From: Carposina sasakii
Lineage: Eukaryota; Arthropoda; Insecta; Lepidoptera; Carposinidae
Reading direction: 5' to 3'
NCBI GenBank assembly: GCA_014607495.2
Contig: CP053165.1
Location: forward strand, 1,296,906-1,360,905
Length of the DNA: 64,000 bases
Part shown: positions 1-53,783 of the stretch, in pieces
Position numbering within the stretch: position 1 is the first letter of the stretch
How the letters are laid out: each line of letters opens with the position of its first letter
Program-made: the position numbers and the translations under genes
The notes under the pieces: model-generated
Told to the model about the DNA's origin: nothing
Database searches by the model: none
What the model saw: only the letters and a program-made list of their open reading frames with translations

Positions 1-330
1 TCGCCCACCACCGGGCCCTACACACTCTGCTGAGCCTCGGATCTGCCGACTCATGATCACGAACACAAGACACTACAGTCGCAATGAGAAGCCAGATCCA
101 AGCACCTAGCATGCAACCATAAATACATAGCTGCTAATCCGAAAACCAATTAAAATTTTTAATCGACATATGTTTCGCCAACACCCGTGGAATCATCAGA
201 ATTGGTCCGATCATCAGAATCAGATCCGAGGGTCAACGGAGGGTGTAGGGCCCGGTGGCGGGCGACCCCTCAATGGAGATTTGAACTTCCGAATATTGAC
301 GCCTGATACAATTTTAAATATTTAATTAAA
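1..330. repeat. Hammerhead-bearing foldback repeat, copy 1 (inverted pair, runs off left edge)
   Basis: Bases 1-45 and 222-268 are inverted copies of one another (tcgcccaccaccgggccc... against ...gggcccggtggcgggcga). Between them on the minus strand lies a hammerhead-like core. The right half continues into the family's 3' tail (cgcctgatacaatt, about 297-315). The same family recurs at 22113-22295, 32522-32960, 35374-35640 and 41205-41480. The copy is cut by the window start. What mobilises it is unknown; the inverted-pair layout resembles Penelope-type pseudo-LTRs. Confidence 0.75.
141..208 (-). ncRNA. Degenerate hammerhead ribozyme (type I-like)
   Basis: On the minus strand the core CTGATGA (199-193), GAAAC and the short stem III ACATATGT followed by C (cleavage GUC at 165/164) are all present. 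Stem II has lost one pair (GCCA changed to TCCA opposite TGGC). Stem I keeps four pairs including one U-G. It is probably weak or inactive compared with the copies at 35 kb and 41 kb. Confidence 0.6.
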
Positions 331-22090: not shown

Positions 22091-22112
22091 TTATGTTTAA
22101 AACTACTAGTAG

Positions 22113-22295
22113 GTTAAATGAAATTGTATTAGGCGTTACAATTCGGAAGTTCAAACATTCAAAAGTTCGGGTCTGGTTTCTCATGGCGATTGTAGTTAGT
22201 GCAAGTGCCTGTTGTCGCAATTATGAGTTATCAGATCCGAGGGTCAGTGGAGGGTGTAGGGCCCGGTGGTGGGCGCACCCATAGTGAATACTAGT
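22113..22295. repeat. Foldback (hammerhead-family) repeat, rearranged copy without ribozyme
   Basis: The family's 3' tail in reverse (attgtattaggcgttacaat, 22124-22143) is joined to the forward mid-part (ggtctggtttctcatggcga onward) ending ggcccggtggtgggcg. The hammerhead core is absent, so this is an internally recombined copy. Confidence 0.65.
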
Positions 22296-22327
22296 AGGTT
22301 TACGTACGTAGCAGCTTTTAGATCTGC

Positions 22328-22548: not shown

Positions 22549-22962
22549 AAGAAATAACCATACAGAGAGCCGATGGAAGCTGTTAATTCATATCTAGTTT
22601 GTTATAGATCTACTTGTTTGGTTTAACCACGGCTGGCGATTGTTTGTTTCGTTTCGATAGATTCCGGCCTAGTAACCTGTTTCTACTCATATCTTAATAG
22701 TAAATATTTATGCTTGTGCTAATGCACTGTATTGATGATATAATAATAGAGTTCATGAAAGTATTGCTTAATCTTCATCATTGAAGCCAGATGTTATTAC
22801 CCGACGGCGCCAGATGGAGGGTTATGTTTTTCGAGCATATGTTTGTATACATATGTACCTATATAAGGTCTATTTAAAATTTGTGACTATCTTTTGACAC
22901 GAAGCGAGGTAGGTAAAAAGAAACAACTTTCACTATGGAACCAATACCTAAATATATTTAAA

Positions 22963-23417
22963 AAAACATAATTTAAAAAATCCAAAAACCCGACTGCGTA
23001 AAAAAGAACCAAACTATGTATATAATAATAATAAAAAAACTGAAAAGATGAAAACAAGCACTTAGATGTCCAGTGGTCTAGAATTCTATAATATTATTAT
23101 GGAATTAATAATAATTGAAGAAAATAAAATATTTTCTAATGATGTAACATAACAACTGAACAGCCAGGATCCATTGAAATATTAATAGCTTGGCTGTCGG
23201 TTACTGGATCCCGACTGTTCAGTTGTTATATTACATCATTAGAAAATATTTTATTTTCTTCAATTATTATTAATTCCATAATAATATTATAGAATTCTAG
23301 ACCACTGGACATCTAAGTGCTTGTTTTCATCTTTTCAGTTTTTTTATTATTATTATATACATAGTTTGGTTCTTTTTTACGCAGTCGGGTTTTTGGATTT
23401 TTTAAATTATGTTTTTA
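22963..23417. repeat. Long near-perfect inverted repeat (hairpin)
   Basis: Arms 22963-23173 and 23205-23417 are reverse complements with only a few mismatches, all seen near the loop (aacagccaggatcc against ggatcccgactgtt). The loop is about 31 bp. A transcript through it would form roughly 210 bp of double-stranded RNA. Confidence 0.85.
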
Positions 23418-27486: not shown

Positions 27487-28720
27487 TTATCTTACTACTC
27501 TCAATAGAGCTTCCGTTTGTTCATAAGTAAGGTTCTGAAGAAATTTTGAAACTGTCTTTTTGCATAGGTAATATTTTAAGGGTTGCAAGTTAAGTTCTTT
27601 ATTTAGTTTATTATAGAGGTAACCTCCCAGAAAATATTCACTTCCTTGACTGGCAACACATCTAAGGTAAGGAGTTTTAAAAAGTCTACCTCGTCTTCGA
27701 ATGTCATTTCGGTCACTATCTAATGATCCAGCCTCTCTGTGCTTCCTAAGAATGACATTGAGAATAAAGAGTTGCCTCACCGTCAGTACCAGCGCTCTTC
27801 CATATAGTGATGAAGTCGGGAAAAGATATGGCAGTGCTAGGCTGACTTTGAGAACAGCTCTCTGTGCCATCTCAAGTGGAAGCATATGCGTCATACAGGC
27901 ACCCCCCCACACATTTATACAGTATTGCAGAAGAGACTGACATAGGGCGAAGTAAATCATTCGTGTAATTTTTGGGTCTGCAACGTTTCTCATGGTTCTA
28001 AAAACAGCCATCAACTTGCGAATCCTGTTAGCCTGTGACTGTAAGTGTGATTGGAAAGTAAGTTGGTTGTCAATTACAACGCCAAGATACCCAATCTCAG
28101 CAACTTTCATCAGGCTAGGGCACGAATAGCACCGAATACCACTACAGGCTGTTGAGTGTGATATTAGTTGTAGTATGTTAGATGATGGTTGAGTGGTACG
28201 TACAAGGGAAAAAGTAAGGAATTTCGTTTTCTCTATGTTCAGGCTTAGTAAATTAGTACTAAGCCATCTACTTACTTTATTAAAGCCTACCTGTGCTAGC
28301 TGATACGTTCTAGTCCAATCCCTTGCACGAAAGACGAGAGCTGTATCGTCCGCAAAGGCAATTATTTTGCCGCAGCATAGATCTATGTTACAGAGCTCAT
28401 TGATATAGATGAGAAATAGAGTTGGGCCCAATATACTGCCCTGGGGGACACCAAAAGACAACGGAAGAGGCTCACTCACATAATCACCAACTTTGACACT
28501 CTGTGTTCTATCACTCAAATAGTCCTCAGACAGTTTAATCTGTAGCCCACGTATCCCTATTCTCTCCATTTTTGACAGTAGCAGAGGTATTGACACCGTG
28601 TCAAATGCCTTAGCAAGATCCAAAAATACTCCAAGACATCTGTCACCTGCATCGAGGCTCTTTGTTATGTACTCTATAAGAGTCGCCATCGCATCGGCAG
28701 GAGATTTACCTTATTACCTT
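27487..28720 (-). CDS. Reverse transcriptase of a CR1/Jockey-group LINE, 5'-truncated
   Basis: The frame from the Met codon at 28689 gives 400 residues to the stop at 27487; it stays open for about ten codons upstream (reading SPADA just before that Met) to a stop near 28720. Motifs in order: FLDLAKAFD at 22-30 (first catalytic Asp), YLSDR at 57-61, GVPQGSILGP at 80-89, and the catalytic FADD at 112-115. Then comes a GYLGVVID-type block near 198 and a thumb region. This is the palm and thumb of a non-LTR retrotransposon reverse transcriptase, which copies the element's RNA at a nicked target. The endonuclease, fingers and ORF1 are missing, so the copy is dead on arrival by 5' truncation, yet the rest has no stop or frameshift, suggesting a recent insertion. 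CR1/L2-like is my best placement within the Jockey group; not certain. Confidence 0.85.
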
Positions 28721-31768: not shown

Positions 31769-32521
31769 GCTCAGAAAGTAAAAAGATTTGGCATAGTTGA
31801 TAGAGCCCGTTTCATAGAATACCTCCTATGTCTGATTTCCAAACTAACATTTTTAATATGAAGTGAATAAACAGCATCTCTTCGTGATTTTATTAATACG
31901 TAAATAATTATTTTGTTTTCGTACCTTAAATAAAAGTTTACACCCTAAAATAATAGTTAATTACGACAGCAGACATAAACAATACAAATCACAAAATAAA
32001 GAAACACAGACCTAGGAAAGTCTCAATAAAATTGCTAATGAAAACGTACACAACCTTCATTTGCATCAACACTTGAAAACGCTGTTTCACACAGAGCTTT
32101 AAATAGAAACACTGCCTAGCATTCGAAGGGTTAATTAAAACCGCCCTTATTAAATTACTACCGGTTACAACGTTTTAACTCGGTCGCGCCTCTAAAACAA
32201 AAATATAATTTATTTAGTACCAGGAAGTTATTGGGGGAGGCATAATGTTTATCAGTGGATTTCGTATTGCTCAAACGATGAACGTAAAAGTCGATTAACT
32301 GAGGTGGTACCAACCTGAGTACATAATAACATCATCATCATCTTCATGCCCTAATCCCATCATAAATGGGGTCGATGCATTATGGCTTCCTTCGAAACTG
32401 AAATTGCTAAAAATTTGCCGTTTGTTTTACGGCTAAGTATAAAATAACATTTTGAAAATACTCACACTTACGCTTGAGTACGGTTACATGGAAATAACTA
32501 TCAAATCTAATAGATACTTCC
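31769..32521. other. AT-rich stretch, no gene seen
   Basis: No exon recognised. A scrap near 32343-32385 (catgccctaatcccatcata) resembles the short retroposon at 14722-14870. Confidence 0.4.
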
Positions 32522-32960
32522 AACAGGGATTCGCCCACCACCGGGCCCTACACCCTCCACTGACCCTCGGATCTGATAACTCATAACTGCGAAAACAAGC
32601 ACTTGCAATAGCTACAATCTCCATAAGAAACCAGATCCGAGCACCTAGCATGCAAGATAATACATTACACTATTCCGAAATCAAAACCTAGATTATTAAT
32701 CTACATAGGTTATGTTTCACCAACACCCGCGGCATCCTCAGGATTACAGAAAATTGCATTTCTATAATCCAGCGGATTTGGTTTCTTGTGGCGATTGTAG
32801 TTAGTGCAAGTGCTTGTTTTCGCAGTTATGAGTTATCAGATCCGAGGGTCAGTGGAGGGTGTAGGGCTCGGTGGTGGGCGAACCCTTGTTGAAAGTTTAA
32901 AATTCCGAATAGTAACGCCTAATACAATTTCATTTCTAATAGATACATTATTTTATAATC
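32522..32960. repeat. Hammerhead-bearing repeat, copy 3 (inverted pair)
   Basis: A minus-strand copy (32522-32746) and a plus-strand copy (about 32760-32960) meet head to head through a small hairpin (ggattacagaaa / tttctataatcc). The plus-strand member keeps about 12 bp of its 5' end, then jumps past the ribozyme to the ggatttggtttcttgtgg part. Confidence 0.75.
32697..32746 (-). ncRNA. Hammerhead ribozyme, type I
   Basis: Minus strand: stem I TAATC (32746-32742) pairs GATTA (32701-32697). The core is CTGAGGA then GAAAC. Stem II is GCCG/TGGT, paired through G-U wobbles. Stem III is extended to ACATA/TATGT with a 3-base loop. The cleavage triplet is GUA, with the cut between 32702 and 32701. 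Changes relative to the 35 kb copy keep the pairing. Confidence 0.7.
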
Positions 32961-33060: not shown

Positions 33061-34455
33061 TACATACTACGATATAGCTCTAGTTTATTGTATTAAAAAT
33101 TATTATGATCATTCTGTGAAAAAGCTACCGCCATATTTCTACCTTAATTGTTGCTGACGCAATGTCTCGACATGGACTAATTAAATTTAATCACGCACGA
33201 GGCGACCTAGCAAACAACAACCCTTAAGAACATTAGTCGCTACCCTTAAGTAATGACTATTTAATTGCTTTATGATCGTGACTGTCCAGCTAACTAGTGT
33301 TCTGAAAAACATTAATAAAATGTGCATTTACCTAAGTTGTTCTACACTGGGCTTAATTAGTGTAACGAAAAATTTTACGATTGAAAGTGACGCATAGTTT
33401 TCAAAACATTTTCTTAAATACGAGTAGAAACCCTTCAGTTATCATGTTCTGACGTAACGTGAGTTAACTAATAGCTATCGTAAAATTATTTATAAAGAAA
33501 TGGAAAAAATTCTTCACCCGAGTGGGAATCGAACCCTTATACGAGCTGGATATATAATAGCTATCGGTAGAAATGAATCGAAATATTATCTAAGCCGCTT
33601 TTATGTGGATCGCATAATTAATCTGAACAACTTGTTACATTAAGTTAGCTTGAATAATATGAGGCAATCGCCAATTAGACCCATCATACCGAGTAAGTAT
33701 AATTTTTAGTCGCTCTCAACTCGCGTCCATATGAAAGTGAAATATGGACGAAATAAATCAAAATTCTCTTTTGATTCCCCTAAGCGCCCCTAAGGTTTGA
33801 TAAATTGCATTTTTGGCACAACACAATCAAAACACGCTTCACCTAATGAGGCAATTTAGATTCAAATTCGCTTGTACCTACTCGTTTGCTGTTCTAATGT
33901 GTTACATATTGGAAAGTCATAATAAAGCGTCCAATTATGTTTGGAAATTAATGAATCACTCAGTGGAATGAAGCCTGTTTATTTCCATTAAGTGCTTAAT
34001 ATACCTACGTAATGTAAAATGGCTTATTGGAAAACTAGAGTCTGCCCGAGCTTTGCTGATAAATACGCGCAACTATGGCATAATATTAATAAAATTACCC
34101 GAAGGAGGAGGGTTGGCGACAGCAAGCAGTCGGCCGTAAAAAAAACGACAAATCTTTGGAAATGAGTTTATACTCGTAGTTATGAAAGCAACCATATTGT
34201 GCCGACCCCTCAAATAATGACAAAATACATAGTTACTACGTACATGGCCTGCTACCTTTCCTCTATGCTACGTAGCTGGGGATGCAATTGATTTCTACCA
34301 ATCAAATTCATTGATATCTTGTACCAAGTAATACGATTGGTTGATGCGTAGCTACGTCAGCATAGAAGATCTCTGGTGGAAAGGCAGCCTGAGATACTAT
34401 GTTGACTATGATTCTTTGCATATGTACTAGAAGTATTTAACGGAACGGTGTATGA
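33061..34455. other. Unassigned AT-rich sequence with a SINE scrap
   Basis: Contains a truncated family A SINE (33478-33540, minus strand) and a gcagtcggccgtaaaaa fragment near 34120. No exon recognised. Confidence 0.45.
33478..33540 (-). repeat. tRNA-headed SINE family A, truncated
   Basis: ggaaaaaattcttcacccga then gtgggaatcgaaccc, broken in the B box. Confidence 0.65.
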
Positions 34456-34458
34456 ATC

Positions 34459-34585
34459 ATCATTATCATCATCAGCCTGTTGCAGTCCACTGCTGGACGT
34501 AGGCCTCCCCCAGGGCACGTCACAAGACTGCCGTGAGGGGTATTTGCCCATAGTCACCACGCTGGGCAGACGGGTTGGTGACCGA
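34459..34585 (-). repeat. RTE-like 3' end with CAT tail
   Basis: catcatcagcctgttgcagt...gcacgtcacaagactgccgt...ctgggcagacgggttggtga. Confidence 0.7.
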
Positions 34586-35297
34586 CGGGCTTGGTGTATG
34601 GATACTCCAAGCAATATATACGTATATTAAAAAGTACAGGTAAATGATTTACAGCGAGCTTTGAAAGTTAGCAGGGATTATGGATGAGTGTTCCAATCAG
34701 TTTCCGTTTGTACGGTTTAAATATTTTTGTATATTTCCGACAAGGTTTTTTCATGCAAAAAATAAATTCTCAGTAGGTAGGTATATGGGTTTGGGTCCAT
34801 AGCATATTTATAGCCTTTTATTCTTTGATTAATGATTGGTCTTCGCTCCGCTCTGACTCATTATTCTAAGCTTTTATTTATTTATTTCGTACCTTGTTAT
34901 ACTATTTATAACTCGATAGTAAAATGGATTGTCCAAATATCAGTGTTCGACTATAGATGTAAGCTAACATTATACATACCTAGATCCGCAAATTATTTAC
35001 ATAGATAAAACAAAAAAAAACGATGTTATTTCGCTTATTAAATTCTTAGTAAATACCAAATAACAAAAAACTGTATACCAAATACATCAGCCAGTCATAA
35101 CGCGTGACTGGCTTTATTCGACATAACCAGAGCGAATTTTTGGCTCGATACCAAAAAAAGCGAGATTTAGTGACCCTTTTCAAGTGGAAATGTTTAATAT
35201 GATTTTAGGTACCTAAGCTTCACGATTGTTCAAGAGCGGGTAATTGATTTCGAAATTGTTTGGAGTTGAAAATTTTACATCATATTGCGGGCTAGTT

Positions 35298-35373
35298 CAT
35301 GTTAGTTCTATCTACCGAACCAACTAACTAGTTTTTAGTTTAGTTAGTTGGTTCGGTAGATAGAACTAACATG
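35298..35373. repeat. Perfect 33 bp-arm palindrome abutting the hammerhead
   Basis: Arms 35298-35330 and 35341-35373 (catgttagttctatctaccg ...) are exact reverse complements around a 10-base loop. The right arm ends at the base before the ribozyme's outer stem I (35374). Confidence 0.9.
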
Positions 35374-35442
35374 GAAAACTAATCCTGATGATGCCACGGG
35401 TGTTGGCGAAACATATGTCGATTAAAATTTTAATTGGTTTTC
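35374..35442 (+). ncRNA. Hammerhead ribozyme, type I, complete core
   Basis: A self-cleaving RNA motif. Stem I: TAATC (35380-35384) pairs GATTA (35420-35424), with an outer helix GAAAAC (35374-35379)/GTTTTC (35437-35442) across an asymmetric loop. The conserved core CTGATGA is at 35385-35391. Stem II is GCCA (35393-35396)/TGGC (35404-35407) with loop cgggtgt and one extra T at 35392. GAAA is at 35408-35411. Very short stem III AC/GT around ATAT, then C at 35419. The cleavage triplet is GUC, cutting between 35419 and 35420. All invariant positions of the family are present. Short stem III is typical of hammerheads found in animal retroelements. Activity is inferred, not shown. Confidence 0.8.
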
Positions 35443-35640
35443 GGATTAGCAGCTATGTATTTATGGTTGCATGCTAGGTGCTTGGATCTGGCTTCTCGTT
35501 GCGACTGTAGTGTCTTGTGTTCGTGATCATGAGTAGGCAGATCCGAGGGTCAGCGGAGGGTATAGGGCCCGGTGGTGGGCGATCCCTCAATAGAGATTTA
35601 AACTTCCGAATAGTGACGCCTGATACAATTCAATATGTAA
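35374..35640 (+). repeat. Hammerhead-bearing repeat, copy 4 (single, best preserved)
   Basis: Runs from the ribozyme through gcatgctaggtgcttggatc, aggcagatccgagggtcagc and gggcccggtggtgggcga to cctgatacaatt. It defines the order of the family: palindrome, ribozyme, body, GC-rich block, tail. No protein is encoded. Confidence 0.8.
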
Positions 35641-37034: not shown

Positions 37035-37123
37035 ATTGTATTTCTTTTGGAAAGGTTTTCAAAGTAAATTCGATAAATGTGTTACCGAATTTACTTTGAA
37101 AACCTTTCTAAAAGAAATACAAT
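37035..37123. repeat. 38 bp-arm hairpin
   Basis: Arms 37035-37072 and 37086-37123 are reverse complements with one mismatch around a 13-base loop. Confidence 0.85.
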
Positions 37124-41204: not shown

Positions 41205-41480
41205 TGAAATTGTATTAGGCGTTACAATTCGGAAGTTCAAACATTCACTATGGGTGCGCCCACCACCGGGCCCTACACCCTCCAATGACCCTCGGATCTG
41301 ATAAGTCATAATTGCGAAAACAGGCACTTACACTAACTACAATCGCCACGAGAAACCAGACCCGAGCACCTAGCATGCAAGACGATACATTACACTATTC
41401 CGAAATCAAAAACTAGATAAATAATCTACATATGTTTCGCCAACAACCGTGGCATCCTCAGGATTATAGAAATTAGTAAA
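41205..41480 (-). repeat. Hammerhead-bearing repeat, copy 5
   Basis: Minus-strand copy: tail at 41214-41250, GC-rich block cccaccaccgggccctacac, body, ribozyme at 41421-41467. A partial second ribozyme-like block (gaggatgcctgttgcgaaaa, 41594-41613) lies beyond a palindrome, so this may be the remains of an inverted pair. Confidence 0.8.
41421..41467 (-). ncRNA. Hammerhead ribozyme, type I
   Basis: Minus strand: stem I ATAATC (41467-41462)/GATTAT (41426-41421), six perfect pairs. Core CTGAGGA (N7 is G, which the core tolerates). Stem II GCCA/TGGC with loop cggttgt. GAAA, stem III AC/GT around ATAT, cleavage triplet GUA with the cut between 41427 and 41426. Confidence 0.78.
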
Positions 41481-41504
41481 TTAGTAAACCACTAATTATT
41501 ATGA

Positions 41505-41585
41505 ACCTCTAAAACCCCAACACATTACTTCATTATATTGTTATATAATATAATTAAATAAGTAATGTGTTGGGGTTTTAGAGGT
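41505..41585. repeat. 26 bp-arm palindrome next to a hammerhead
   Basis: acctctaaaaccccaacaca... at 41505-41530 and its exact complement at 41560-41585, with an AT-rich 29-base loop. It starts 37 bp from the ribozyme's 5' end. Confidence 0.85.
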
Positions 41586-48601: not shown

Positions 48602-48835
48602 AGAGATTGTAAAATTCGTCATTCGAGTAATTGACCCGGTAGCTCAGTGGTTAGAGCGCTAGCACGGTATGCATAGGTCGTGGGTTCGATTCCCACTCGG
48701 GTGAGGAATTTTTTCCATTTCTTTATTAATAATTTTATAGTATATAATATCTTGACTAAGATAAATTTATAAAAAACACTTCTCCATTAATTAACACCAT
48801 ATCCTAACGGATTATTATTTTTTAATTACACGAGA
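48602..48835 (+). repeat. tRNA-headed SINE, family A, reference copy
   Basis: Leader gtaaaattcgtcattcgag, A box tagctcagtggttagagcgc, B box gggttcgattcccactcggg, then tail aattttttccatttctttat...atatcttgactaagataaat...atcctaacggatta. The B box is intact and Pol III could recognise it. Confidence 0.8.
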
Positions 48836-50844: not shown

Positions 50845-52206
50845 CTGCTCGAAGGCGTAACGCCGGAAGCATGGAACAGAAGTGTGGTGGTGCTGTTCTT
50901 TAAAAAAGGCGATAAAGCCTTGCTGAAGAACTATAGACCCATCTCGCTTCTGAGCCATGTCTACAAGTTGTTTTCAAGGGTAATCACGAATCGTCTTGCT
51001 CGCAGGTTTGATGACTTCCAGCCTCCCGAACAAGCCGGTTTCCGAAAAGGGTTTAGTACCATAGATCATATCCACACGCTACGGCAGGTTATACAAAAAA
51101 CGGAAGAGTATAATCGGCCACTATGCCTAGCATTCGTGGACTATGAGAAGGCCTTTGATTCGATCGAGACATGGGCAGTGTTGCGGTCTCTCCAGCGGTG
51201 CCATATTGACCATCGATATATCGAAGTGCTGAAGTGTTTATACAGCAATGCCACCATGTCGGTACGAGTACAGGAGCGGAGCACTGAGCCGATTTCTTTG
51301 CAGAGGGGAGTGAGACAAGGAGATGTTATTTCTCCGAAGCTCTTCACCAATGCAGTGGAAGACGCCTTCAAGCTTCTCGAATGGAAAGGACTCGGCATCA
51401 ATATCAATGGCGAATACATCACTCACCTTCGGTTCGCAGACGACATCGTGGTCATGGCAGAATCGCTGAAGGATCTAAGCACAATGCTCGATGGCCTCAT
51501 TCGAGTCTCCCAACAGGTGGGCCTGAAGATGAACATGGACAAGACGAAGATCATGTCGAACGTCCATGTGCCGCCCACTCCTGTACTGGTTGGGAGCTCG
51601 ATGCTTGAAGTTGTTGACGAGTATGTTTACCTGGGACAGACGGTCAAACTAGGTAAGTCCAACTTTGAGAAGGAGGTAACTCGGCGAATCCAACTCGGCT
51701 GGGCAGCGTTCGGGAAACTACGAAGCTTATTTGTGTCCAAGATACCCCAGTCCTTAAAGACGAAGGTATTCAACCAGTGCGTGCTGCCGGTGATGACCTA
51801 CGGTGCCGAGACGTGGTCTCTAACTATGTGCCTCATAAAAAAGCTCAGGATCGCACAGCGAGCGATGGAGAGAGCTATGCTTGGGATCTCTCTGCGTGAT
51901 CGAATCAGAAATGAGGAGATCCGCAGACGTACAAAGATCACCGACATAGCTGAACGGTCCAGCAAGCTGAAGTGGCAATGGGCAGGGCACATAGCTCGAA
52001 GAACTGATGGCCGATGGAGTCGGAAAGTTCTAGAGTGGATACCACGTATCGGCAAGCGCAGCGTGGGAAGGCCACCCGCGAGGTGGACGGATGACCTGGT
52101 CAAGGTTGCGGGCGTCGGTTGGATGCAGGCTGCTTCCGACCGGTCGGAGTGGAGGTTGTTGGGGGAGGCCTATGTCCAACAGTGGACTTCTCAGGGCTGT
52201 AAATGA
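50845..52206 (+). CDS. Reverse transcriptase of an RTE-like LINE, 5'-truncated
   Basis: The frame runs from the truncation point to the TGA at 52204, giving 440 residues from the GTG at 50884. It stays open upstream with plausible RT sequence (EGVTPEAWNRS just before). Motifs counted from 50884: FFKKGDK at 5-11, NYRPISLL at 16-23, AGFRKGFST at 51-59, FVDYEKAFD at 84-92 (first catalytic Asp), GVRQGDVISP at 142-151 and the catalytic FADD at 184-187. A YLGQTVK-type block and a C-terminal GRPPARWTDD motif follow, and the protein ends EAYVQQWTSQGC. This is the fingers, palm and thumb of a LINE reverse transcriptase. The AP endonuclease is missing, so the copy cannot move alone, but the remaining frame is intact. 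The 3' end runs into atgatgaatgatgaa, the start of an ATG-type tail. Short RTE-like 3' ends across the window share its last ~40 bp. Confidence 0.88.
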   Translation: MLEGVTPEAWNRSVVVLFFKKGDKALLKNYRPISLLSHVYKLFSRVITNRLARRFDDFQPPEQAGFRKGFSTIDHIHTLRQVIQKTEEYNRPLCLAFVDYEKAFDSIETWAVLRSLQRCHIDHRYIEVLKCLYSNATMSVRVQERSTEPISLQRGVRQGDVISPKLFTNAVEDAFKLLEWKGLGININGEYITHLRFADDIVVMAESLKDLSTMLDGLIRVSQQVGLKMNMDKTKIMSNVHVPPTPVLVGSSMLEVVDEYVYLGQTVKLGKSNFEKEVTRRIQLGWAAFGKLRSLFVSKIPQSLKTKVFNQCVLPVMTYGAETWSLTMCLIKKLRIAQRAMERAMLGISLRDRIRNEEIRRRTKITDIAERSSKLKWQWAGHIARRTDGRWSRKVLEWIPRIGKRSVGRPPARWTDDLVKVAGVGWMQAASDRSEWRLLGEAYVQQWTSQGCK

Positions 52207-53060: not shown

Positions 53061-53479
53061 CTGGTACAATAAGAAAACTCCTTTACCCCTATTTCCGACG
53101 ACTCTAGCGGAACGTTATCGTTAATTAACACATAAATTTTTATTGTTACATTGCAGTTACTGTTACCTTATTACAAGGTAGGTTCTAACTTGTACGTATA
53201 GTGCTGTAATATAAATAGACTTAAGGAAGTTATTTAGAGATTTACGAGTAACTTACCTAGATTTTATTATTCGATCACGTAAACACAATAGCATGTTTCG
53301 GAGGAAGGGCTTAGCGCTGAATTGTACTTTGTCATTGTTTATTCAACGATGTTTAATGACGTTAAACATTGTCGTCTGTAACTGCACCTACTGTAATACT
53401 GTTAATATGCCTGAAGCAAGATTAATCATAGTAAATCACTTTTAATATCCCATGATGTATTAATACAATCTAATCAAAT

Positions 53480-53554
53480 CAAATAAATACCTAAAGAATA
53501 AAATCTTTTTAGATCTAATATCTAAAAAGATTTTATTCTTTAGGTATTTGTTTG
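53480..53554. repeat. 35 bp-arm hairpin
   Basis: Arms 53480-53514 and 53520-53554 are reverse complements with one mismatch around a 5-base loop. Confidence 0.88.
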
Positions 53555-53783
53555 ACTATTAATTAGAAATTAGAAATATGTACCTACGAACATACCGAGT
53601 ATATATTCCCAAATGGGATAGCCAGAAACGGTATGAAAACGAAGGCAATCTTACAGCCAATATGGACTTTAAAAATTAATTAGGAGAGCTCGTGGTCCCT
53701 TTACTCTAATATATGTAGCTCTGTAGCAGACCGACATCTCTTTGAATTAGGTGTGGATATTCTATGACTTGATCTAGCCGCAT

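What the first reader, a model, noticed from the sequence alone, without database searches (positions are those of the whole stretch)
35374..35442. Complete type I hammerhead self-cleaving ribozyme in a dispersed repeat
The sequence can be folded by hand into a full hammerhead: stem I TAATC/GATTA, core CTGATGA, stem II GCCA/TGGC, GAAA, short stem III, triplet GUC with the cut at 35419/35420, plus an outer stem I helix GAAAAC/GTTTTC across an asymmetric loop of the kind used for tertiary contacts. The fold and its invariant bases are seen directly. That it cleaves is inference. Hammerheads are established in Penelope-like elements, retrozymes and some satellites.
Basis: partly seen in the sequence, partly recalled or inferred. 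Interest (0 to 1): 0.88.

Follow-up and report, generated by a model that had tools for sequence, protein, structure and literature searches.

The report
Hammerhead ribozyme in Penelope-like retrotransposon
The site is a hammerhead-type RNA motif at the end of a dispersed, mostly truncated jumping gene of the Penelope-like kind in a moth or butterfly genome; motif and host element are of a known kind, but nearby copies show clearly how such elements insert.

Summary
The hammerhead bases are really there (35374-35442, +; predicted cut 35419/35420), but "complete" overstates it. An extra U (35392) lies between core and stem II, so a descriptor without it finds nothing in the window. Stem III is an 8-nt palindrome, Rfam scores are far below threshold (13.2 vs 56.3; 10.7 vs 34 bits), and the minimum-energy fold is not a hammerhead. 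A descriptor allowing the extra base finds four sites in the window, all in copies of one repeat. Eleven of 11 core positions checked are invariant although the subfamilies differ by 21-25%.

The repeat is the end (pseudo-LTR) of a Penelope-like element. In 323 kb of the same contig, 11 insertions have both ends recognisable. Ten of 11 are inverted pairs with a roughly 40-nt "tail" on one end only and target-site duplications; one (X) has neither. One 1.9-kb copy (K) has the same hammerhead end and encodes a GIY-YIG-type endonuclease on the hammerhead strand. This matches published PLE anatomy and the two-site, two-strand reverse transcription of PMC11167929. Self-cleavage is untested. New member of a known kind.

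The parts
35374..35442 (+). Copy A hammerhead: core 35385-35391 and 35408-35410, extra U 35392, stem II 35393-35396/35404-35407, stem III 35411-35418, predicted cut 35419/35420, outer helix 35374-35379/35437-35442
35298..35373 (.). 33-bp perfect palindrome (10-nt loop) abutting the hammerhead; part of its right half is shared with copy X (27 nt, 89%), so it is taken as the element's 5' region, the left half as the inverted counterpart; nothing recognisable further left
35443..35630 (+). Rest of copy A: structured arm and tail, ending near the distal start (ACGCCTGATACAATT)
1..315 (-). Copy B (continues about 13 nt left of the window): hammerhead arm 1-207 (core at 199, cut after 165) and inverted tailed arm 206-314; TSD 12 nt with 1 mismatch, one of its two copies outside the window
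32518..32934 (-). Copy C: hammerhead arm 32518-32752 (core at 32741, cut after 32702, GUA, 5-bp stem III) joined head to head with the inverted tailed arm 32773-32934
32506..32517 (+). Target-site duplication of copy C (TCTAATAGATAC), left
32935..32946 (+). Target-site duplication of copy C, right
41208..41585 (-). Copy D: arm with tail, hammerhead (core at 41461, cut after 41427, GUA), 5' region, palindrome 41505-41535/41555-41585; a damaged inverted second arm with hammerhead remnants continues right of 41585
22116..22288 (+). Copy E: short tailed inverted arm (about 22116-22161) joined to a tailless arm (about 22167-22288), no hammerhead
22104..22115 (+). Target-site duplication of copy E (TACTAGTAGGTT), left
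22289..22300 (+). Target-site duplication of copy E, right

Best explanation
The hammerhead is part of the pseudo-LTR of a GIY-YIG-bearing Penelope-like retroelement (PLE) in a lepidopteran genome; the copy at 35298-35630 is a short, non-coding insertion of that element. Shown by sequence: the family's end = 5' region, hammerhead, structured arm, tail; the same end on a 1.9-kb copy that encodes a PLE-type endonuclease; inverted pairs of ends, one tailed and one tailless, inside target-site duplications. Inferred: the element's protein nicks both target strands about 12 nt apart. Each 3' end primes reverse transcription of a sense RNA at one of two internal start sites about 40 nt apart. The two cDNAs are joined head to head. 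Also inferred: the ribozyme cuts multimeric transcripts, either as a dimer through the self-complementary stem III or helped by the protein. All six copies that pass the descriptor contain sequence on both sides of the cut site, so the copied template was not a cleaved RNA (or had been re-joined).
For: Four window copies with intact core; 11 of 11 checked core positions invariant against 131 of 189 other ungapped columns (P 0.02). Ten of 11 complete insertions in 323 kb have one tailed and one tailless end (boundaries read by eye; hits). TSDs of 9-17 nt in 10 of 11: nine with scores 9-14 (14 of 2000 random place pairs reach 9, 1 of 2000 reaches 11; up to 14 nt slack allowed on the outer side), plus Y (9 nt exact). 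The TSD words are AT-rich, 98 of 124 letters against 63% in the region (14 of 20000 random sets reach that). Copy K-K2: same hammerhead end, tail at the other end, 13-nt TSD, about 1.66 kb between. A 134-aa open frame in it on the hammerhead strand has 10 relatives, of which 6 match PF01541 GIY-YIG at E 0.01 or better, 4 of them above the curated cut-off. Six of the 10 relatives, aligned with it, share KSGVY and Y(I/V)GQTGR. PMC11167929 (parts 1-2 of 4): two adjacent internal start sites, the tail between them, both strands extended, hammerhead, uncleaved template. PMC3846280 (passages and discussion): inverted pLTRs, 31-bp tail on one, 8-10 bp TSDs, palindromes at the junction. Lepidopteran host: best named relatives of a LINE protein. 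PMC8848866 (passages): 10,478 Penelope copies in the monarch totalling 2.55 Mb, by my division about 243 bp each.
Against: The endonuclease piece itself has no GIY-YIG match in Pfam up to E 1 and no NCBIfam match; the link runs through its relatives. The reverse-transcriptase pieces in K resemble Penelope RT only by recalled motifs, with no Pfam match. Copy X has two tailless ends, a few nt shorter than usual, and no TSD. Copies A, D and G have only one clean end; J and N are decayed. Only 323 kb of 399 Mb were examined and no intact element was seen. MFE folds are 5.3 to 18.3 kcal/mol below the hammerhead fold in copies A-D (8.5 for A with the outer helix). Rfam scores are sub-threshold. The pair counts show no double changes and do not beat shuffles.
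Confidence: 0.9

Rival explanations
1. It is a metazoan non-LTR retrozyme: an independent non-coding element of 170-400 nt that makes hammerhead-cut circular RNAs and only borrows PLE enzymes.
For: Size 257-275 bp and GC 43-46% for copies A and D, type I hammerhead, TSDs longer than 4 bp; size, GC and TSD traits as given in PMC7229834 (abstract; results part 1 of 3).
Against: No direct tandem copies among the 24 hits in 323 kb; copies are inverted pairs; the same end belongs to a copy with a PLE-type endonuclease; helix III is minimal as in PLEs.
Confidence: 0.07
2. It is a foldback or terminal-inverted-repeat DNA transposon (MITE) that happens to hold a hammerhead-like loop.
For: Long inverted arms (124 nt, 93% in copy C) and TSDs.
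Against: In the 10 TSD-bearing insertions one end has the tail and the other lacks it. TSD length is variable (9-17). Inner junctions differ between the copies read, down to 70-75 bp stubs (H, G2). Copy K codes for a GIY-YIG-type endonuclease.
Confidence: 0.01
3. Not exclusive of the best explanation: the hammerhead is a fossil with no activity; the pLTR is copied passively and the motif is retained only because copies are young.
For: Sub-threshold Rfam scores, extra nucleotide next to the core, competing fold much more stable. In the anole PLE, catalytic mutants did not affect insertion in vitro and the ribozyme was inactive without protein (PMC11167929).
Against: Core 11 of 11 invariant between subfamilies that differ by 21-25% (P 0.02, modest); stem III lengthened in copy C by a pairing insertion. 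The anole hammerhead cleaves when protein is present.
Confidence: 0.25

Closest known systems
Penelope/Poseidon-type PLE of Anolis carolinensis (PAc; PMC11167929, parts 1-2 of 4 read, covering abstract and main text)
   Same: Hammerhead at the pLTR, two internal reverse-transcription starts bounding a tail, extension of both target strands, AT-rich targets (here tested), uncleaved template
   Different: In PAc the hammerhead overlaps the start of the ORF; here I saw no long open frame from hammerhead to tail (read by eye, not tested by a script), and the distance from predicted cut to the first start is about 175 nt instead of about 90
Adineta vaga Penelope families (PMC3846280, passages and discussion read)
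   Same: Inverted pLTRs, 31-bp tail on one of them, palindrome at the head-to-head junction, 8-10 bp TSDs, solo pLTRs
   Different: There self-priming on an antisense template was proposed; here the two ends begin at the two different start sites even in 70-75 bp insertions, which fits independent priming from both nicks better
Metazoan non-LTR retrozymes (PMC7229834, abstract, part of results, discussion read)
   Same: Short repeat with type I hammerhead, TSDs over 4 bp
   Different: Direct tandem copies and circular RNAs mark that family; no direct tandem was seen here and RNA was not available
Monarch butterfly penelope-1_dPle (PMC8848866, passages read)
   Same: High-copy PLE family in a lepidopteran with short average copy length

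Membership tests
Hammerhead ribozyme, type I | CUGANGA ... GAA ... NUH core in a three-way junction open at stem I | tested here: met
Hammerhead ribozyme, type I | Score at or above the curated threshold of a hammerhead covariance model | tested here: not met
   13.2 vs 56.3 and 10.7 vs 34 bits; none for copies C and D
Hammerhead ribozyme, type I | Self-cleavage after H17 | not testable with these tools
   bench assay needed
Penelope-like element (EN-containing) | GIY-YIG endonuclease encoded by the same element | tested here: met
   copy K-K2, L015:7542-7943(-): 6 of 10 relatives match PF01541 at E 0.01 or better; the piece itself is below Pfam detection
Penelope-like element (EN-containing) | Telomerase-like reverse transcriptase upstream of the endonuclease | tested here: inconclusive
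   pieces at L015:8338-8529 and neighbours resemble it by recalled motifs; no Pfam match
Penelope-like element (EN-containing) | Direct and/or inverted pLTRs, with a 30-40 nt tail on one of them | tested here: met
   10 of 11 complete insertions are inverted pairs with one tail; no direct tandem seen
Penelope-like element (EN-containing) | Short target-site duplications in AT-rich DNA | tested here: met
   9-17 nt in 10 of 11; AT 98 of 124 letters
Metazoan non-LTR retrozyme | 150-450 bp units in direct tandem | tested here: not met
   size met; no direct tandem among the 24 hits, in 323 kb only
Metazoan non-LTR retrozyme | Circular RNA intermediates | not testable with these tools
   no RNA data
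Terminal-inverted-repeat DNA transposon | Identical inverted termini | tested here: not met
   tail on one end only in 10 of 11 complete insertions

The most novel reading that the evidence does not exclude
PLE insertion is a two-sided reaction with a fixed division of labour: one target strand always primes at the distal RNA start (leaving the tail) and the other at the proximal start, so every complete insertion is an inverted pair with exactly one tail, down to 70-75 bp stubs. The rule held in 10 of 11 complete insertions here (under independent equal use of the two sites, 10 or more of 11 has probability 12/2048); the exception, X, has no duplication.
Probability: 0.4. Interest if true: 0.62.

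Novelty: new member of a known kind. Interest (0 to 1): 0.42.

Why it matters
Hammerheads in PLEs are known but their role is not. The mobilisation of short hammerhead repeats by PLE enzymes has been proposed (PMC7229834, PMC7761336), and how PLEs make inverted copies was left open in PMC3846280, which favoured self-priming. This family links one hammerhead end to a GIY-YIG-bearing element and to many short copies with readable ends. The minimal stubs speak for priming from both nicked strands. A whole-genome count of tailed and tailless ends would test that cheaply.

Tried and rejected
Rfam microRNA matches at 35288-35386 are the 33-bp palindrome fitted by hairpin models, on both strands for several, all below gathering scores; rejected. 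The palindrome of copy A was first thought to be host DNA snapped back; set aside when part of its right half was found in copy X. Direct TSDs for A and D: only matches of 7-8 nt at odd places, not accepted. DNA patterns of arm and core in viral contigs: 0 matches each. Covariation: too few sequences, no double changes, no better than shuffles. PDB sequence search with the endonuclease piece: nothing. The one answered genome search, with the hammerhead DNA, returned no match; the tool says that it skips words that are very common. broke off with a script error after its first part and was redone. Papers not held; those works are known to me only from citations in other papers or from recall.

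The descriptor was changed after its first form found nothing. The palindrome test (1 of 200000) used a 40-nt limit chosen after seeing the cases. Ends of insertions for the TSD test were set by eye from printed sequence before scoring. The profile used to find copies was built from the window's own copies A-E and includes a few flanking bases of C and E. Left out of the 11: one-ended A, D, G and decayed J, N; 16 loci in all, grouped by reading.

The effect of an extra nucleotide between A9 and stem II rests on recall of a viroid study whose title I saw in a reference list only. Literature on hammerheads with Lepidoptera terms: searches (8 of 8 papers listed; 19 or 20 of 23 listed; 8 of 8 listed; 25 of 28,433 and 8 of 6,504 listed, too broad to tell) showed no paper on hammerheads in lepidopteran PLEs in the listings; this covers only the held open-licence library.

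Full report
What is in the sequence. Core CTGATGA 35385-35391, GAA 35408-35410, cleavage triplet GTC 35417-35419, stem I TAATC/GATTA, stem II GCCA/TGGC and an outer helix GAAAAC/GTTTTC can be written down. Two features were overlooked. A U (35392) sits between the core and stem II. Stem III is the octamer ACAUAUGU, which as a hairpin gives 2 bp with a 4-nt loop, but is self-complementary and can pair 8 bp between two molecules. The minimum-energy fold of 35374-35445 is another structure at -14.9 kcal/mol; the hammerhead stems without the outer helix score -3.5. Over 35374-35442 the figures are -13.2 and, with the outer helix, -4.7.

Is it more than chance? Rfam at gathering threshold reports only a tRNA in the window, and no hammerhead up to E 10 when 401 nt are given. 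Given 72 nt, three matches are listed; the two best are RAGATH-1 hammerhead (13.2 bits, threshold 56.3, E 3.3) and Hammerhead_1 (10.7, threshold 34, E 6.3), both in the right register. Copies C and D give no hammerhead. A descriptor with stem II directly after the core found nothing in the window. Allowing one base there, after having seen it, gives four places, all in copies of one repeat; 300 random windows gave 9 hits. Across copies A-D, 11 of 11 checked core positions are invariant against 131 of 189 other ungapped columns (P 0.02). Copies A and B are 95.6% alike, C and D 90.6%, and between the pairs 74.6-79.0%. Pair counts on the four copies show 96% paired cells but no double changes and nothing beyond shuffles.

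The repeat. BLAST and a profile show copies A (35298-35630), B (1-315 and a little beyond), C (32518-32934), D (41208-41585 and beyond) and E (22116-22288). B, C and E contain a second, inverted arm. In C and E the insertion is bounded by exact 12-bp target-site duplications, and one arm ends about 40 nt earlier than the other: the longer has a tail ending ACGCCTAATACAATTTCATT, the shorter stops at AGTGAA or its equivalent. A chance 11-nt duplication at two places with small slack occurs 36 times in 200000. A and D have palindromes just upstream of the hammerhead, 2 of the 4 tight palindromes of the window. Two such neighbours by random placement occurred 1 time in 200000, with a 40-nt limit chosen afterwards. 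The palindrome half next to the hammerhead is taken as the element's own 5' region: shared by D and F and partly K, and by A and X over 27 nt at 89%. D's far side holds damaged hammerhead remnants (alignment score 86.0, highest of 200 shuffles 50.4). A's far side shows nothing (34.8, highest shuffle 56.8).

More copies. The window lies at C18:1296906-1360905 of a 399-Mb genome in 31 contigs. I took 260 kb of stretches around it, making 323 kb with the window. The profile gave 24 hits, which I group into 16 loci by reading. Eleven have both ends recognisable. Ten (F, G2, H, B, E, C, I, K-K2, M, Y) have one tailed and one tailless end in inverted orientation; X has two tailless ends. Five loci were left out: A, D and G with one clean end, J and N decayed. 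Duplications were found in nine by script (scores 9-14; random pairs reach 9 in 14 of 2000 and 11 in 1 of 2000) and in Y (9 nt), not in X. Their letters are AT-rich (98 of 124; 14 of 20000 random sets reach that). H and G2 are only 75 and 70 bp: two stubs of cDNA joined head to head. The descriptor finds 7 places in 323 kb, 6 in this family.

Identity. K-K2 is 1919 bp: hammerhead end at one side, tail at the other, 13-nt duplication, with open pieces on the hammerhead strand. The 134-aa piece (L015:7542-7943, minus), of which 120 residues were given to Pfam and NCBIfam, matches no GIY-YIG model there but has 10 relatives. Six of the 10 match GIY-YIG PF01541 at E 0.01 or better, four of them above the curated cut-off. 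Six of the 10, aligned with the piece, share KSGVY and Y(I/V)GQTGR. Other pieces look like Penelope reverse transcriptase by recalled motifs only. The order on that strand is RT-like pieces, endonuclease, 5' region, hammerhead, arm, as in PLEs. The host is lepidopteran by the named relatives of a LINE protein at 50884-52206 (the best 120 of 1977 were listed, most without a name).

Comparison with the literature. PMC11167929 (parts 1-2 of 4) reports for an anole PLE: reverse transcription from two adjacent internal sites, the stretch between being the tail; extension of both target strands; a protein-assisted hammerhead; and insertion by uncleaved RNA. PMC3846280 (passages and discussion) reports inverted pLTRs, a 31-bp tail on one, short duplications and junction palindromes in rotifer PLEs, and proposes self-priming on an antisense template. 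PMC7229834 and PMC7761336 (passages and sections) propose PLEs as movers of short hammerhead repeats. PMC8848866 (passages) shows that PLEs are abundant and short on average in the monarch. The present family fits these; the one-tail rule and the minimal stubs favour priming from both nicks.

How it most likely works. Shown: anatomy, duplications, start-site pairing, linkage to an endonuclease, and copying across the predicted cut site in the six copies that pass the descriptor. Inferred: nicking of both strands, the two start sites, joining of cDNAs. The ribozyme may trim multimeric transcripts, acting as a dimer or with protein. That it cleaves at all is untested.

Verdict. A real hammerhead-type motif of the minimal PLE kind, not a textbook complete ribozyme; a new member of a known kind. 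The most interesting part is the insertion signature, which a whole-genome count could settle.

Noticed in passing
window 22962-23416: 212-nt inverted repeat, 99% complementary, 31-nt spacer; looks like a recent foldback of another kind, no duplication noticed by eye
   Followed up: partly
window 37035-37123 and 53479-53555: Tight palindromes (42 and 36 nt arms) not next to a recognised copy of this family
   Followed up: no
window 34455-34584: About 130-bp repeat with about a dozen further BLAST matches in the window, probably another short transposable element
   Followed up: no
window 27487-28689 (-) and 50884-52206 (+): LINE-type reverse transcriptase open frames (RVT_1)
   Followed up: partly
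window 48633-48704: tRNA-family match, 42.1 bits
   Followed up: no
C18:1510205-1510661 (copy X; end of L025 and start of L026): Head-to-head pair with two tailless ends; neither hammerhead passes the descriptor and no duplication was found: the exception to the one-tail rule
   Followed up: partly
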